A DNA stretch of 39,303 nt from assembly GCA_035574915.1 (NCBI GenBank), contig DATLYJ010000055.1:1-39303 (forward strand). The letters are read 5' to 3'. Under the pieces are notes generated by a model. The model had not been told where the DNA came from. It saw nothing but the letters and a program-made list of their open reading frames with translations, and did no database searches. Source of the DNA: Dehalococcoidia bacterium (GTDB lineage Bacteria; Chloroflexota; Dehalococcoidia; DSTF01; WHTK01). Below are positions 10,756 to 16,902 of the stretch, piece after piece; position 1 is the first letter of the stretch, and every line of letters begins with the position of its first letter. The translations under genes and the position numbers were made by a program.

Positions 10756-12075
10756 CTACAGGATGGGCAGGTAGCGCTTGAGCTCGAAGTCGGTGATGTG
10801 CGAGCGGTAGGCCTCCCACTCGATCCGCTTGCTCTTCAGGAGGCTCTCGAAGACATGGTCGCCTAGGCAGGTGCGCAGCAGCTCCGAGCGCTCCGCCTCC
10901 AGCAGCGCCTCGTAGAGGCTGCCCGGCATCGTGGACGCCTCCTCGTAGGCCTCCGGGGCCGTCGCCGGGTCCCGCGCCGGTGGCAGGGGGTACTCGCGCT
11001 CGATGCCCTCCAGGCCCGCCGCCAGCAGCGCCGCGAACGCTAGGTAGGGATTGCAGGCGGCGTCCGGCGCCCGGTACTCGATGCGGGCGGCGATCTCGCG
11101 GCCCGGGCGGTACTCCGGCACGCGCAGGAGGTCGCCGCTGCTGCGGCGCGCCCATGTCAACCGCACCGGCGCCTCGAACCCGGGTACCAGGCGCTTGTAC
11201 GAGTTCACCCACTGGTTAGTGACCAGCGCGATCTCGCGCGCGTGGCGCAGGAGCCCGGCGATGAAGCCGCGGGCTACGGCCGAGAGATGTATGGGGTCCT
11301 GGGCGTCGAAGAAGGCGTTGCGTTCGCCGCGGAAGAGCGAGAGGTGGGTGTGCATGCCAGACCCGTTCTGGTCGCTGAGGGGCTTGGGCATGAAGGTCGC
11401 GTACACGCCGGCGGCCATCGCGACTTCCTTGACGACGAGGCGGCAGGTCATCGTACTGTCCGCCATCGTGAGGGCATCCGTGTAGCGGAGGTCGACCTCG
11501 TGCTGGGAGGGGGCGACCTCATGGTGACTGGACTCCACGCCGATGCCCATCTCTTCCAGCGTGAGCACGGTCTCGCGCCGCAGGTCACTGCCGGCGTCCA
11601 GGGGCGTTAGGTCGAAGTAGCCGCCGTGGTCGAGTAGCTCGGTGCCGGAGGCGTCCTTGAAGTAGAAGAACTCGATCTCGGGGCCGACGTAGAAGGTGAA
11701 GCCCAGGGCCGCCGCCCGGGCCAGGTTCCGCTTCAGCACCTGGCGAGGGTCACCTTCGAAGGGCGTCCCGTCTGGCAGGTGGATATCGCAGAACATGCGG
11801 GCGACCCGCCGCTCCCGCGGGCGCCAGGGCAGCACCTGGAACGTGCTGGGGTCCGGGATCGCCGTCATGTCGGTCTCGCCGGTGCGGGCGAAGCCCTCGA
11901 TGGCGCCGCCGTCGAAGCCGACGCCCTCTTCGAGCGCCTCCTCGAGCTCCTCGAAGGTGATCGCGAAGCTCTTCAGCGACCCGAGGATGTCCGTGAACCA
12001 CAGGCGGATGAACTTGACGTCCTGCTGGCGGCACTGCTGGAGGACGTACTCGTTGGCTGGTTGGCTTGTTGGCAT
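10756..12075 (-). CDS. Glutamine synthetase, type I-alpha-like
   Basis: A 439-residue GS that would make glutamine from glutamate, ammonia and ATP as a dodecamer. The hallmark segments are [56 protein letters not shown] and [19 protein letters not shown]. The form SSHHEVAPxQHE, the short length and the absence of an adenylylation tyrosine loop place it with GSI-alpha, whose activity is normally controlled by feedback and regulator contact. FDGGAIEGFARTGETDM departs from the usual FDGSSI...ESDM, so a changed metal or substrate geometry, or a non-canonical substrate such as a polyamine or other gamma-glutamyl acceptor, is possible. It is divergent from the GlnR-like regulator with a GlnR-type box between them. 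Confidence 0.9.
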   Translation of the reverse strand: MPTSQPANEYVLQQCRQQDVKFIRLWFTDILGSLKSFAITFEELEEALEEGVGFDGGAIEGFARTGETDMTAIPDPSTFQVLPWRPRERRVARMFCDIHLPDGTPFEGDPRQVLKRNLARAAALGFTFYVGPEIEFFYFKDASGTELLDHGGYFDLTPLDAGSDLRRETVLTLEEMGIGVESSHHEVAPSQHEVDLRYTDALTMADSTMTCRLVVKEVAMAAGVYATFMPKPLSDQNGSGMHTHLSLFRGERNAFFDAQDPIHLSAVARGFIAGLLRHAREIALVTNQWVNSYKRLVPGFEAPVRLTWARRSSGDLLRVPEYRPGREIAARIEYRAPDAACNPYLAFAALLAAGLEGIEREYPLPPARDPATAPEAYEEASTMPGSLYEALLEAERSELLRTCLGDHVFESLLKSKRIEWEAYRSHITDFELKRYLPIL

Positions 12076-12123
12076 TTGGAAGGCCGGCCAGAAAGCGAGC
12101 TAAGGGGTCGTGGCGACTTATCC

Positions 12124-12150
12124 ATGATAACGGCGGCCGGCGGCCAGCAA
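12124..12150 (-). promoter_or_regulatory. Promoter of the alpha-type glutamine synthetase gene
   Basis: On the minus strand TATCAT (12129-12124, five of six consensus bases) is preceded at 15 bp by TTGCTG (12150-12145), or at 16 bp by TTTGCT. Transcription would start near 12117, giving a leader of about 40 nt. The GlnR-type box lies immediately upstream of the -35, a standard place for an activator. Confidence 0.45.
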
Positions 12151-12160
12151 AGCAGAGCAG

Positions 12161-12176
12161 GTTAAGTTTTGGTTAC
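12161..12176. promoter_or_regulatory. GlnR-type box between GS-alpha and the regulator gene
   Basis: Plus strand GTTAA-N6-GTTAC; read on the minus strand it is GTAAC-N6-TTAAC, the 5-mer pair with 11-bp phasing used by GlnR regulators. It lies about 85 bp from both start codons and just upstream of the predicted GS-alpha -35, so it could control the synthetase and the regulator itself. Confidence 0.6.
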
Positions 12177-12248
12177 TTTGGCCCGCCGGCCTGCGATCGG
12201 CCGCTTGCGCTCAGGTCCTGGCCGCTGCCTCGGCGCGTTCGCGAGACA

Positions 12249-12254
12249 TATACT
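12249..12254 (+). promoter_or_regulatory. -10 element giving a leaderless regulator mRNA
   Basis: TATACT ends 8 nt before ATG 12263, so transcription should begin at or within a couple of bases of the start codon. There is no Shine-Dalgarno (the bases before ATG are GGCCCCAA), which agrees with a leaderless transcript. The -35 is weak. Confidence 0.5.
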
Positions 12255-12262
12255 GGCCCCAA

Positions 12263-12919
12263 ATGGCACGCGTCCTCCTCGCCTACCACTCTGAAGGCAG
12301 CGCGTTTCTCGAGCGCGACCTGGGCGCTGCCGGCTTCGAGGTGGTTGCCCGGCGCATGGTCGATGCGGACGTCCTGGCCGAGGAGCACGGCGCCGACGTC
12401 ATCGTCATTGAGTCGCCGGTGCGGATGGACGACCTGCGGCGGCTCGTGGAGAACCCGGCCCGCGGGCCTAAAACGCCCCTCGTCGTCCTGCTCCGGCCGG
12501 ACCAGCTCGGCGGCCTCGAGCCGACCCTGCCGATCGACGACTTCGTGCTCATCCCCGTGGCCGCGGAGGAGCTGGTCCTCAGGCTGCGACGCTTGATCTG
12601 GCGCAAGACCGGGCTGGATGAAGCCTCCGTCGTCCGCTACGGGGAACTGGTGATGGACCTGGCGAACTACAAGGTCTACGTCGGGGACACACCCGTGAGC
12701 CTGACCTACAAGGAGTTCGAGTTGCTGCGGTTCCTGATGGTCAACCGCGGCAAGGTCTTCACGCGTGAGGCGCTGCTCAACCGCGTGTGGGGCTACGAGT
12801 ATTACGGCGGCGCCCGCACGGTCGACGTCCACATCCGCCGCCTCCGCAGCAAGATAGAGTCCGGCTCGACCGTTTACATCGAGACCGTCCGCAACGTGGG
12901 CTACCGCTTCCCGGCGTAG
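12263..12919 (+). CDS. glnR: GlnR-like orphan OmpR-family nitrogen regulator
   Basis: A 218-residue transcription factor with an N-terminal receiver-like domain (about 1-108) and a C-terminal winged helix (about 124-217; SLTYKEFELLRFLMVNRGKV, RTVDVHIRRLRSKIE, YIETVRNVGYRF). The receiver lacks the phosphorylation machinery. Its first strand ends LAYHSEG with no acidic pair, the phosphoacceptor position reads VIVIESP with Glu instead of Asp, and the Lys of the usual KP motif is absent (LIPVAAEE). This is the pattern of actinomycete GlnR, which acts as an unphosphorylated dimer. No kinase gene is adjacent. The neighbours are GS-alpha, amt, PII and GS-beta, and GTAAC/GAAAC arrays precede them, so global nitrogen control is strongly suggested. 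The name is inferred from context plus domain features. Confidence 0.85.
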   Translation: MARVLLAYHSEGSAFLERDLGAAGFEVVARRMVDADVLAEEHGADVIVIESPVRMDDLRRLVENPARGPKTPLVVLLRPDQLGGLEPTLPIDDFVLIPVAAEELVLRLRRLIWRKTGLDEASVVRYGELVMDLANYKVYVGDTPVSLTYKEFELLRFLMVNRGKVFTREALLNRVWGYEYYGGARTVDVHIRRLRSKIESGSTVYIETVRNVGYRFPA

Positions 12920-12998
12920 TCGGCGGCGCTCAGGGCGGACGCCGGCCGCGGCGAGTCCGGAAATCGGCGTCAGGAGCCGTCCTGGCATCGTTCGCTCG

Positions 12999-13052
12999 TT
13001 AACCGAGGCGTAACCCCAACGAAACATCGCCGTAACAAGGCGGGCCTACGCT
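12999..13052 (+). promoter_or_regulatory. Four-part GlnR-type operator and promoter of amt-glnB
   Basis: TTAAC (12999-13003), GTAAC (13010-13014), GAAAC (13021-13025) and GTAAC (13032-13036) are spaced by exactly 6 nt each, giving an 11-bp period. This matches the GlnR pattern GTnAC-N6-GAAAC repeated. Ten nt after the last 5-mer comes TACGCT (13047-13052) as a -10. The leader to ATG 13117 would be about 58 nt. Confidence 0.8.
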
Positions 13053-13116
13053 CCCTGCGTTGGGTCGGAGTCCTTCTGTGCCCGGAAGGACCAGTAACTA
13101 TTGGAGGGGAGAAGGC

Positions 13117-14475
13117 ATGGAGATTAGCTCAGGCGACACCGCATGGGTCCTGGTCTCATCGGCGCTGGTGATGCTGATGACGCCGGGACTGGCGCTGTTT
13201 TACGGGGGCCTCACTCGCAGCAAGAACGTGCTCGCCACGATCATGCAGAGCTTCATCATGCTCGGCCTGATCACGGTCGAGTTCGTGCTGATCGGTTACA
13301 GCCTGGCCTTCGGGCCAGACCACTGGGGGCTCATCGGCGACTTCTCGTGGTTCGGCCTCAAGGACGTTTCCATGAGCGAGCCGGGGCCGTACGCGCCGAC
13401 AATCCCGCACCAGACCTACATGATCTTCCAGCTTATGTTCGCGGTGATTACCCCGGCGCTGATCACGGGCGCATTCGCCGAACGGGCGAAGTTCAGCACC
13501 TTCCTCGTGTTCATGCTCGCCTGGGCGATCCTCGTCTACAACCCGGTGGCGCACTGGGTCTGGGGACAGGGCGGCTGGCTCGGCGGCATCCCGGACCAGG
13601 ACGGGCAGACAGGGTTGGGCGCGCTCGACTTCGCGGGCGGCACCGTCGTGCACATCAACGCCGGTATCGCCGCGCTGGTGGCGGCCTGGCTATACGGGAA
13701 GCGCCACGGCTTCGGCCGCGAGCCGATGGAACCGCACGACGTCACGATGGTCGTGGTGGGCGCCGCGCTCCTGTGGTTCGGCTGGTTCGGCTTCAACGCC
13801 GGCAGCGCCGTCGCGGCGAGCGCCCTGGCCTCCAACGCCTTCGTCGTCACTCACGTCGCGACCGCGACGGCGGCGCTGACCTGGATGGCGTTGAGCTGGC
13901 TCGTCTCCGGCAAGCCGAGCGTCGTCGGCGCCGCGTCCGGCGCCGTCGCCGGCCTGGTCGCCATCACCCCCGCCTCGGGCTCCGTCACGCCGATGGCGGC
14001 GCTCGCTATCGGCGCCGGCGCCGGCAGCCTCTGTTACCTGGCGGTGCGTATCCGCGCCAGGGTCGGCCTGGACGACTCGCTGGACGTCGTCGGCGTGCAC
14101 GGCGTCGGCGGCACCTGGGGCGCCCTGGCCACCGGCCTCTTTGCCGTCGCCTCGGTGACGGGCGCTGCGGAGGGTCTGTTCTCCGGCGACAGCGAGCAGT
14201 TCGGCAAGCAGCTCATCGCCGTCGTCGCGACCATGGCTTACTCCGCTATCGTTACCTTCATCATCCTCAAGGTCCTGGATGCCGTGATGGGTCTGCGGGT
14301 GAGCGAAGAAGAAGAGATCATGGGGCTGGACGTCAGTCTGCACGGCGAGCGCGGTTACATCCTCGATGGCGGCCCGGGTTACTCCGGCATCCCGATCGTC
14401 GTCGCAAACGGCGGCCCCTCCTCGAGTTCGCCGCCCCAGCCCTCGCGGCCGGCAACCAGCGAGGCCACGAGCTAG
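13117..14475 (+). CDS. amt: Ammonium transporter Amt
   Basis: A 452-residue integral membrane channel for ammonium of the Amt/Mep/Rh family. The hydrophobic profile suggests 11 transmembrane helices. Family signatures include DTAWVLVSSALVMLMTPGLA at the first helix, FYGGLTRSKNVL, the pore segments NAGIAALVAAWLYGKR and GWFGFNAGSA, and the twin-His region with VVGVHGVGGTWGALATGLFA. The start is ATG 13117, preceded by TTGGAGGGGAGAAGG; upstream in-frame codons would place charged residues before the first helix. The cytoplasmic C-terminal tail (EEEIMGLDVSLHGERGY) is the usual PII contact. It is cotranscribed with the PII gene 32 nt downstream and lies behind a four-part GlnR-type operator. Confidence 0.97.
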   Translation: MEISSGDTAWVLVSSALVMLMTPGLALFYGGLTRSKNVLATIMQSFIMLGLITVEFVLIGYSLAFGPDHWGLIGDFSWFGLKDVSMSEPGPYAPTIPHQTYMIFQLMFAVITPALITGAFAERAKFSTFLVFMLAWAILVYNPVAHWVWGQGGWLGGIPDQDGQTGLGALDFAGGTVVHINAGIAALVAAWLYGKRHGFGREPMEPHDVTMVVVGAALLWFGWFGFNAGSAVAASALASNAFVVTHVATATAALTWMALSWLVSGKPSVVGAASGAVAGLVAITPASGSVTPMAALAIGAGAGSLCYLAVRIRARVGLDDSLDVVGVHGVGGTWGALATGLFAVASVTGAAEGLFSGDSEQFGKQLIAVVATMAYSAIVTFIILKVLDAVMGLRVSEEEEIMGLDVSLHGERGYILDGGPGYSGIPIVVANGGPSSSSPPQPSRPATSEATS

Positions 14476-14480
14476 GCTAG

Positions 14481-14849
<369 letters not shown>

Positions 14850-14873
14850 CCGCTGACGTGCCGGATCTGCACG

Positions 14874-14911
14874 AAATCGGCCCCAAAGTCGCGACTTTGG
14901 GGCCGATTTTT
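14874..14911 (+). terminator. Perfect 36-bp palindrome, intrinsic terminator of amt-glnB
   Basis: AAATCGGCCCCAAAGTCG (14874-14891) is followed directly by its exact reverse complement (14892-14909) and then further T residues. As RNA it gives a stem of about 16 bp with a CGCG loop, ending in a U-rich tract on either strand. It separates the PII gene from the next GlnR-type promoter. Confidence 0.85.
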
Positions 14912-14950
14912 GTCATTTTGGCCCAAATTCCTGCCATTTTCGCCGCCCAG

Positions 14951-14982
14951 GAAACAAGACCGTAACACGGCGGCCCTAAGCT
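14951..14982 (+). promoter_or_regulatory. GlnR-type box and promoter of glnA (GS-beta)
   Basis: GAAAC (14951-14955), N6, GTAAC (14962-14966), then 10 nt and TAAGCT (14977-14982) as -10. The layout GAAAC-N6-GTAAC-N10-TAnGCT is the same as in front of amt, and the intervening bases are also alike (CGGCGGCCC against AGGCGGGCC). Confidence 0.75.
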
Positions 14983-15005
14983 TCATCTACCAAGGAGGAG
15001 AAACA

Positions 15006-16421
15006 ATGCCAACACCGGAAAACGTCGCCAGGCTCATCCAAGAGAACAACATCCAGGTAATCGACCTCAAGTTCAACGACCTGCCGGGTATCTGGCAGCA
15101 CTTTTCCGTGCCGGTCGCCGAACTCGAGCACGGGATCTGGGAAGACGGCGTCGGCTTCGACGGCTCCAGCATCCGCGGCTTCCAGAAGATCCAGGAATCG
15201 GACATGAACCTGTTCCTGGACGCATCGACCGCGGTTGTCGACCCCGCTTGCGAGGTGCCTACCCTCTCGATAATTTGCGACATCTTCGACCCGCTGACGA
15301 AGAAGGAGTACACCCGCGACCCGCGCTACATCGCGAAGAAGGCTGAGGCCTATCTGAAGTCGACGGGCATCGCCGACGTTAGCTACTGGGGCCCCGAGCT
15401 CGAGTTCTTCATCTTCGACGACATCCGCTTCGACTCGACCGAGAACGCGAGCTACTACTACGTCGACTCCATCGAGGGCGAGTGGAACACGGGGCGCGAC
15501 GAGAAGCCAAACCTCGGTTACAAGCCTCGCTACAAGGAAGGCTACTTCCCCGTCCCGCCGCACGACTCCTACCAGGACCTGCGCAGCCAGATGATCATCG
15601 AGATGGCCAAGGTGGGCATCCCCGTCGAGAAGCAGCACCACGAGGTTGCCACCGCCGGCCAGGGTGAGATCGACTTCCGTTACGGGACCCTGGTCCAGAC
15701 CGCGGACCGGGTGATGATGTACAAGTACATCGTCAAGAACGTGGCCCGGAAGGCGGGCAAGGTCGCCACGTTCATGCCCAAGCCGCTCTTCGGCGACAAC
15801 GGCTCCGGCATGCACACGCACCAGAGCATCTTCAAGGACGGCCGGAACCTGATGTCCGACCCCAAGGGCTACGCGGGCATTTCCGACATCTGCAAGTGGT
15901 ACATCGGCGGGCTGCTGAAGCACGCCGCGGCCATCCTGGCCTTCGCTGCCCCCACCACCAACAGCTACAAGCGCCTGGTGCCCGGCTACGAGGCGCCTGT
16001 GAACCTCGTCTACTCCGCCCGCAACCGCTCGGCCGTGTGCCGCATCCCGATGTACACGGACCACCCTAACGCCAAGCGGATCGAGTTCCGCGCCCCGGAC
16101 CCGAGCTGCAACCCCTACCTCGCTTTCGCGGCTTGCCTCATGGCCGGCCTGGACGGGATCGAGAACAAGATCGACCCCGGCCCGCCGCTGGACAAGAACA
16201 CTTACGAGCTCTCGGAGCGAGAGCAGCGCCGCATCCGCACCGTGCCGGGCTCGCTGAACGAGGCGCTCGACGCCCTCGAGCGCGACCACGCCTTCCTGCT
16301 CAAGGGCGGGGTGTTCACTCAGGACGTAATCGACACGTGGCTGGAGTACAAGCGCCTGGAGATCCCGAAGGTGTCCATGCGCCCCCACCCGTACGAGTTC
16401 CACCTCTACTTCGACGCCTGA
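15006..16421 (+). CDS. glnA: Glutamine synthetase, type I-beta
   Basis: A 471-residue dodecameric GS for ammonia assimilation. Signature segments are [90 protein letters not shown] and [20 protein letters not shown]. The C-terminal part has [11 protein letters not shown], where the Tyr corresponds to the adenylylation site of GSI-beta enzymes, and it ends [11 protein letters not shown]. Length and a roughly 25-residue beta-type insertion (around [20 protein letters not shown]) agree. The start is ATG 15006, with AAGGAGGAG 6 nt upstream. It has its own GlnR-type box and is followed by a strong terminator, so it is a single-gene unit. Confidence 0.97.
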
Positions 16422-16464
16422 CGGCTTCACGCTTCGGCGTGCACCGCTTCGGGGAGACGCTCAT

Positions 16465-16493
16465 GGGGCCGGGCGCAGTGCCCGGCCCCTTTA
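16465..16493 (+). terminator. Intrinsic terminator of glnA
   Basis: GGGGCCGGGC (16465-16474) and GCCCGGCCCC (16480-16489) pair perfectly over 10 bp with loop GCAGT, followed by TTTA. It lies 44 nt after the glnA stop. Confidence 0.8.
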
Positions 16494-16544
16494 CGTCGCC
16501 CGCCACGAAGGCGTCGTTACCGGAGTGCTCTCAAGAAGACAAAG

Positions 16545-16574
16545 TTGACATCTGCGTAAGTCATGGCTTACAGT
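16545..16574 (+). promoter_or_regulatory. Promoter with overlapping operator palindrome (ArsR gene)
   Basis: TTGACA (16545-16550) and TACAGT (16569-16574) are 18 bp apart. Inside, GTAAG (16556-16560) and CTTAC (16567-16571) form an inverted repeat with 6-nt spacing that overlaps the -10, as expected for autorepression by a dimeric ArsR protein. The mRNA would start near ATG 16585 and be leaderless. Confidence 0.6.
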
Positions 16575-16584
16575 GGCCTCCGGC

Positions 16585-16902
16585 ATGGAGGACGCCCTGC
16601 GAGCCATCGCCGAGCCACGGCGGCTCGAGATCCTGCGCCTCATCGCGACGCGGGAGATGCCTTCAGGCGAGATCGCCTCGCACTTCACCGTATCGCGGCC
16701 CGCGATCTCGCAGCACCTGCAGGTCCTGAAAGCCGCCGGCCTCGTGTCGGAGCGCCGGCAGGGCACGCGGCGCCTCTACCGGGCGCGGCCAGAGGCGCTG
16801 GCGGAGCTGCGGGCCTTTCTCGACAAGTTCTGGGAGTCGAGCCTCGATCGGCTGAAACAGGCCGCGGAGGCCCAGGAGAGGAGGGCCAGCCGTGGCGGGT
16901 GA
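16585..16902 (+). CDS. ArsR-family winged-helix regulator
   Basis: A 105-residue DNA-binding repressor with the ArsR fold: ALRAIAEPRRLEILRLIA, MPSGEIASHFTVSRPAISQH (recognition helix), LQVLKAAGLVSERRQGTRRL and YRARPEALAELRAFLDKFW. No metal-binding CxC motif is present. It therefore belongs to the SRPBCC-partnered branch, in which ArsR-like proteins occur next to AHSA1-domain genes. A GTG at 16573 is in frame (109 residues), but ATG 16585 fits the predicted leaderless start better, since there is no Shine-Dalgarno. The next gene overlaps the 3' end by 11 nt, showing tight translational coupling. Confidence 0.88.
   Translation: MEDALRAIAEPRRLEILRLIATREMPSGEIASHFTVSRPAISQHLQVLKAAGLVSERRQGTRRLYRARPEALAELRAFLDKFWESSLDRLKQAAEAQERRASRGG

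What the first reader, a model, noticed from the sequence alone, without database searches (positions are those of the whole stretch)
12999..13052. Four-part GlnR-type operator with strict 11-bp phasing upstream of amt-glnB
Seen: TTAAC, GTAAC, GAAAC and GTAAC each separated by exactly 6 nt, then 10 nt to a TACGCT -10. Known: actinomycete GlnR binds GTnAC-N6-GAAAC pairs with 11-bp phasing. A GlnR-like protein is encoded in the same cluster. In a probable Chloroflexota genome this would show that the GlnR code extends beyond Actinobacteria.
Basis: partly seen in the sequence, partly recalled or inferred. Interest (0 to 1): 0.85.

Follow-up and report, generated by a model that had tools for sequence, protein, structure and literature searches.

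The report
GlnR-type nitrogen switch in Chloroflexota
A nitrogen-control DNA code known from actinobacteria, short boxes repeated every 11 bases and read by the protein GlnR, is also present and conserved in another phylum (Chloroflexota), ahead of the genes for ammonium uptake, glutamine synthesis and nitrate use, together with a GlnR-like protein.

Summary
TTAAC, GTAAC, GAAAC and GTAAC start at 12999, 13010, 13021 and 13032, and a TACGCT lies 10 nt further on. None of 200,000 dinucleotide shuffles of the 197-nt gap gave four phased boxes. In the whole 3.25-Mb genome, box-pair plus -10 occurs three times: before amt-glnB, before glnA, and before a PII/molybdo-oxidoreductase/MFS/nitrite-reductase operon; the reversed control gave 0. 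Upstream of amt/glnB/glnA genes in class relatives, box pairs sit 6 nt apart 48 times and 0-3 times at any other spacing, on one strand only. In a neighbouring family, amt lies away from glnR and keeps the operator. Actinomycete amt promoters, tested identically, show the same peak. The 218-aa protein has a GlnR-type degenerate receiver and groups with actinomycete GlnR, not with canonical OmpR regulators. The genome has no sigma-54. The class is Dehalococcoidia (Chloroflexota). Best reading: a genuine GlnR regulon outside Actinomycetota. Protein-DNA binding, the nitrogen signal and the evolutionary route are not shown; two relatives have boxes but no detectable GlnR.

The parts
12999..13036 (+). 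Four-box GlnR-type operator of amt-glnB (TTAAC-N6-GTAAC-N6-GAAAC-N6-GTAAC)
   Evidence: found again in relatives' amt promoters; top hits of a matrix built without the window
13047..13052 (+). Putative -10 (TACGCT), 10 nt after the proximal box; box 3 falls at the -35 position
   Evidence: TAnnnT offsets after the last box peak at 10, 21 and 32 nt in 74 arrays; no sigma-70 -35/-10 pair was found here
13117..14475 (+). amt, ammonium transporter (452 aa)
   Evidence: frame translated; tblastn homologues at 57-75% identity next to glnR/glnB in relatives; named from sequence and context, Pfam was not run on this frame
14508..14849 (+). glnB/glnK, PII signal protein (113 aa)
   Evidence: Pfam PF00543 2.8e-28
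14873..14910 (+). Intrinsic terminator after glnB (18-nt perfect arms, then T run), making glnA1 a separate unit
14951..14966 (+).
14977..14982 (+). Putative -10 of glnA1 (TAAGCT), again 10 nt after the proximal box
15006..16421 (+). glnA1, type I glutamine synthetase
   Evidence: NCBIfam TIGR00653 670 bits, above cut-off
12161..12176 (-). Two-box element GTAACCAAAACTTAAC in the glnA2/glnR divergent gap, reading towards glnA2
   Evidence: near-identical GTAACCAAATCTTAAC upstream of glnA2 in the same-family genome G001 (L036)
10756..12075 (-). glnA2, glutamine-synthetase-like protein divergent from glnR
   Evidence: Pfam Gln-synt_C 1.6e-113; TIGR00653 441.7 bits
12263..12919 (+). glnR-like regulator P0001 (218 aa): degenerate receiver + OmpR/PhoB winged helix

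Best explanation
The element is a GlnR-type activator site. Copies of the 218-residue GlnR-like protein most likely bind head to tail, one winged-helix domain per 5-mer and one helical turn apart, with two dimers on the four boxes. Box 3 sits at the -35 position and box 4 just downstream, 10 nt before the -10, so the bound protein would replace a missing -35 and recruit RNA polymerase. The target genes are for scarce nitrogen: amt-glnB, glnA1, probably glnA2, and a distant nitrite/nitrate assimilation operon. The receiver lacks its phosphorylation residues, so control is probably not by a histidine kinase. Shown here: box anatomy, phasing, conservation, genomic targets and protein relationship. 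Inferred: binding by this protein, activation, tetramer formation and the nitrogen signal.
For: Exact phased array, 0 of 200,000 shuffles. Spacing test over 75 upstream regions of nitrogen genes in class relatives: 48 pairs at 6 nt, 0-3 at other spacings, 0 at 6 nt on the opposite strand. The own genome has exactly three box-pair + -10 sites, all before nitrogen operons, control 0; over 18 genomes of the order, 17 hits against 1 control. In family f3, amt away from glnR keeps GAAAC/GTAAC-N6-GTAAC-N10-TA. Triple arrays over 294 class genomes: 193 against 61 reversed controls (summed by hand); of the 30 places chosen by the tool, 15 are directly before amt, PII or glnA. The -10 keeps the 11-bp register: offsets 10, 21 and 32. 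A matrix from relatives only puts the five best window hits (15-23 bits, next 8.7) in these gaps. Actinomycete amt promoters give the same peak in the same test, 22 at 6 nt against 0-1 at other spacings. Best PDB sequence hits of P0001 are GlnR 8hih and 8hig. The tree parts canonical OmpR regulators from all GlnR-like proteins at 100/99, winged helix alone at 95. No sigma-54 in the genome. Published M. smegmatis motif Gn2AC-n6-GnAACA, where spacing and adenines are needed (PMC3662644); S. coelicolor amtB box a2 at the -35 (PMC5826061); GlnR tetramer on four sites (PMC10704036).
Against: No binding, expression or mutant data. The recognition helix RTVDVH-RRLR-K is partly shared with other OmpR-type regulators, including an own-genome paralogue with RTVDVHVSWLRQK (L075). 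G046 (97% complete) and G040 have phased boxes before amt/glnA, yet a profile search found only canonical regulators there. Within the GlnR side the tree does not resolve whether Dehalococcoidia and Actinomycetota are sisters. The Foldseek ranking of the model does not single out GlnR.
Confidence: 0.88

Rival explanations
1. The boxes are read by another OmpR/PhoB-type regulator of the same cell (PhoB/RegX3/MtrA-like); the nearby glnR-like gene is incidental or shares the sites, as PhoP and MtrA do with GlnR in actinomycetes.
For: Canonical paralogues in the own genome have related recognition helices. G046 and G040 have boxes but no degenerate-receiver GlnR. In another Chloroflexota family (f96) GTAACT-N5-GTAACT repeats precede non-nitrogen genes such as isocitrate lyase. 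PhoP/MtrA competition for GlnR sites is cited in PMC11162112.
Against: In the own genome all three promoter-type sites are before nitrogen operons. The glnR-amt-glnB-glnA linkage is conserved across the class. P0001 matches GlnR better than RegX3, PhoP or MtrA and falls on the GlnR side of the tree.
Confidence: 0.08
2. The array is a repressor or dual-purpose site: bound GlnR-like protein covers the -35 and blocks transcription in nitrogen excess.
For: Boxes 3-4 overlap the core promoter. M. smegmatis GlnR acts as activator and repressor (PMC3662644).
Against: No -35-like hexamer is found that a repressor could mask. The -10 keeps an 11-bp register with the boxes, as expected if bound protein contacts polymerase. 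Target functions are those of nitrogen scarcity.
Confidence: 0.08
3. A chance array or a structural repeat without regulatory meaning.
For: Pairs alone are common: about 16 expected per genome for the loose pair, and an own-genome search for GWAACN6GTAAC gave 5 hits, only 2 in this cluster.
Against: 0 of 200,000 shuffles with four boxes; conservation in register and orientation across the class.
Confidence: 0.01

Closest known systems
Actinomycete GlnR (OmpR-type atypical response regulator) and its regulon
   Same: 5-mers GTnAC/GaAAC with 6-nt gaps in tandem, a box at the -35 of the ammonium-transporter promoter, trailing A as in GnAACA. Targets amt-PII, glnA, nitrite/nitrate genes. Degenerate receiver and near-identical recognition helix; a glutamine-synthetase-like gene beside glnR, as in Acidimicrobiia.
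   Different: Phylum Chloroflexota. Box order TTAAC-GTAAC-GAAAC-GTAAC here and GTAAC-GTAAC-GAAAC-GAAAC in another family of the order, not a-b-a-b. Gene cluster glnA2-glnR-amt-glnB-glnA. Receiver has E where GlnR keeps D (D-50).
PhoB and the pho box (E. coli)
   Same: Same protein fold class; tandem 11-bp direct repeats replacing the -35, about 10 nt before the -10 (from memory, not tested here).
   Different: Different 5-mers and targets; PhoB is phosphorylated by PhoR. P0001 scores 116.9 bits against the PhoB model cut-off of 296.2.
GlnR of Bacillota (MerR family)
   Same: Name and nitrogen role.
   Different: Unrelated protein family; P0001 is Trans_reg_C, not MerR.

Membership tests
Actinomycete-type GlnR regulator | OmpR/PhoB winged-helix DNA-binding domain with GlnR-like recognition helix | tested here: met
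   Pfam Trans_reg_C 5.4e-29; best PDB sequence hits are GlnR 8hih and 8hig; GGARTVDVHIRRLRSK against GGTRTVDVHVRRLRAK
Actinomycete-type GlnR regulator | Receiver domain present but phosphorylation pocket degenerate | tested here: met
   No Pfam receiver hit; acidic pair absent, phospho-Asp replaced by Glu, Lys absent; model shows alternating strands and helices in the N-terminal part
Actinomycete-type GlnR regulator | Conserved Asp (D-50/D-48) that stabilises the homodimer | tested here: not met
   E in P0001 and L036 at the aligned place; D or N in some relatives. It is a feature of the studied actinomycete GlnRs rather than a strict criterion; glutamate may serve, untested
Actinomycete-type GlnR regulator | Groups with GlnR, apart from canonical OmpR-type regulators | tested here: met
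   100/99 for the branch that parts 15 canonical regulators from all GlnR-like rows; SH-aLRT 95 with the winged helix alone. Sampling of canonical regulators was limited
Actinomycete-type GlnR regulator | Orphan: no adjacent histidine kinase | tested here: met
   Neighbours are glnA2 and amt
GlnR operator | Tandem 5-mers GTnAC / GaAAC with 6-nt gaps ahead of nitrogen genes | tested here: met
   consensus from PMC10704036 and PMC3662644
GlnR operator | Bound by the GlnR protein in vitro or in vivo | not testable with these tools
   needs gel shift or ChIP
NtrC / sigma-54 nitrogen control (considered) | sigma-54 encoded in the genome | tested here: not met
   no PF04552 match in the 96%-complete genome, control genomes positive

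The most novel reading that the evidence does not exclude
GlnR and its 11-bp box code are an old nitrogen-control system, present before Chloroflexota and Actinomycetota parted (or spread between early lineages), kept with the same promoter geometry, and still running nitrogen assimilation across much of Dehalococcoidia, possibly also in Omnitrophota and Armatimonadota.
Probability: 0.4. Interest if true: 0.7.

Novelty: new member of a known kind. Interest (0 to 1): 0.58.

Why it matters
GlnR is described as the nitrogen regulator of actinomycetes. In the paper library searched here no paper holds both GlnR and Dehalococcoidia, and the 13 papers holding both GlnR and Chloroflexi have neither term in the title or abstract. 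A conserved cis-code plus regulator gives a predicted nitrogen regulon for a large group of mostly uncultivated bacteria. It also makes a question testable: how a transcription-factor code stays fixed across a phylum boundary while box order, gene order and receiver residues drift.

Tried and rejected
Own-genome search for GWAACN6GTAAC alone is too weak: 5 hits, about what base composition predicts; adding a third box or the -10 context was needed. NtrC was rejected because sigma-54 is absent. Rfam shows no RNA element above the gathering score in 11900-16600. The phylum-wide scan with the looser KWAAC promoter pattern is not informative outside the class: controls often match or exceed hits, and one family (f96) has a different repeat (GTAACT) before other genes. 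Foldseek puts PhoP, PrrA and GlnR at similar E-values, though GlnR 8hih_N, with CosR, has the best full-length TM-score, 0.59. The GlnR-RNA polymerase structure paper (PNAS 2023) is not held, so base-contact residues could not be compared.

Full report
WHAT IS THERE. The 197-nt gap between the 218-aa regulator gene (12263-12919) and amt (13117-14475) holds TTAAC, GTAAC, GAAAC and GTAAC at 12999, 13010, 13021 and 13032, each 11 bp from the next, then AAGGCGGGCC and TACGCT at 13047. No shuffle of 200,000 reproduces four phased boxes. It also did not mention that the glnA2/glnR divergent gap holds GTAACCAAAACTTAAC on the minus strand (12176-12161), with a near-identical element before glnA2 in the same-family genome G001.

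GENOME-WIDE TEST. With -10 context (GWAAC-N6-GWAAC-N9..11-TANNNT) the 3.25-Mb genome holds three places: amt, glnA1 and G000:C39:2328-2359; the reversed control holds none. The third starts an operon of PII, a molybdopterin oxidoreductase, an MFS transporter and a nitrite/sulfite reductase; its array has three boxes. So all three predicted sites precede nitrogen assimilation genes. A weight matrix built only from relatives' sites gives 15-23 bits for the five sites of the window and at most 8.7 bits elsewhere in 39 kb. Because the training sites were picked by a strict core, that matrix is mostly the core plus a preferred following A.

CONSERVATION. Relatives carry glnR-amt-glnB-glnA-glnA2 in various completeness. 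Upstream of amt/glnB/glnA genes (75 regions of 300 nt; some overlap) the distance between boxes is 6 nt in 48 cases and 0-3 at each other distance, and 0 at 6 nt on the other strand. In family f3 of the same order amt lies away from glnR, yet amt is preceded by (GAAAC or GTAAC)-N6-GTAAC-N10-TA in eight genomes: L248-L254 and L260. Over 294 class genomes triple arrays number 193 against 61 for the reversed pattern (my sums). Of the 30 places fetched automatically, 15 lie directly before amt, PII or glnA. -10-like hexamers fall 10, 21 or 32 nt after the last perfect box (15, 19 and 7 of 74 arrays; other offsets 0-4), which is the 11-bp register with further imperfect boxes in between.

POSITIVE CONTROL. 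The same spacing test on amt genes of Actinomycetota relatives of IMCC26256 gives 22 pairs at 6 nt and 0-1 at every other spacing, with -10-like hexamers at 10 nt in several. In S. coelicolor amtB a box lies at the -35 (PMC5826061), as box 3 does here (about -38 to -34 by count from the -10). M. smegmatis GlnR needs the adenines and the spacing of Gn2AC-n6-GnAACA (PMC3662644). Four GlnR molecules bind head to tail on a four-site promoter (PMC10704036).

THE PROTEIN. P0001 has a winged helix (Pfam PF00486) and a receiver too degenerate for Pfam. Best PDB sequence hits are M. tuberculosis GlnR 8hih (1e-32) and GlnR 8hig (1.6e-29; S. erythraea by its title), ahead of RegX3 (7e-28). In the tree, 15 canonical regulators from this genome, an acidimicrobial genome and RegX3 fall on one side (100/99) and all GlnR-like proteins of Dehalococcoidia, Actinomycetota, Omnitrophota and Armatimonadota on the other, with three Omnitrophota rows nearest the canonical ones (in that script the row 'AmedGlnR_8hig' is the S. 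erythraea protein). The winged helix alone gives the same split. Order within the GlnR side is not resolved. The acidic pair, phospho-Asp and Lys are gone, which argues against classical phosphorelay.

ORGANISM. The window's class is inferred: contigs of 'same class' genomes G043:C104 (114,960 bases) and G033:C34 (50,268 bases) match in length and hits the records JACPQD010000012.1 (Chloroflexi bacterium) and DDXZ01000042.1 (Dehalococcoidia bacterium UBA2247). Dehalococcoidia is a class of Chloroflexota.

WHAT IS INFERRED. Binding of P0001 to the boxes, activation rather than repression, tetramer formation and the nitrogen signal rest on analogy. Weak points: two class genomes (G046, 97% complete; G040, 84%) have boxes before amt/glnA but only canonical regulators among the top hits of a profile search; the recognition helix is not exclusive to GlnR; and other Chloroflexota use similar GTAACT repeats for something else.

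VERDICT. It is a new phylum-level member of a known kind of regulon, not a new kind of system.

Noticed in passing
window 13070-13091: A perfect 7-bp hairpin (GTCCTTC-TGTGCCCG-GAAGGAC) lies in the amt leader between the -10 and the start codon; no Rfam match.
   Followed up: partly
G000:C39:2317-2359 (L207 2317-2359): Three-box array plus TAGAGT ahead of an operon of PII, molybdopterin oxidoreductase, MFS and nitrite/sulfite reductase genes; a predicted nitrate/nitrite assimilation operon under the same control.
   Followed up: yes
L317-L321 and family f96 genomes: Another Chloroflexota family has conserved GTAACT-N5-GTAACT-N9-TAnnnT repeats before non-nitrogen genes (isocitrate lyase, acetyltransferase); probably the regulon of a different OmpR-type protein.
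   Followed up: partly
G046 (L219, L333) and G040 (L235, L332): Phased boxes before amt/glnA in genomes where no degenerate-receiver GlnR was found; only canonical response regulators.
   Followed up: partly
L095, L103, L106, L117, L121, L126 (Omnitrophota), L094 (Armatimonadota), L112 (Latescibacterota): GlnR-like proteins in MAGs of further phyla, in L121 before a glnA2-like gene and in L094 after one; could be real or mis-binned.
   Followed up: no
L113 and L148: Record titles look wrong: 'Bifidobacterium breve' L113 groups with Ferrithrix and 'Acidobacteria' L148 lies inside the Acidimicrobiia GlnR group.
   Followed up: no
G445, many contigs: GTAACACGAAGGAAACCTT repeated at about ten places of one genome; looks like a dispersed repeat, not a regulon.
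   Followed up: no
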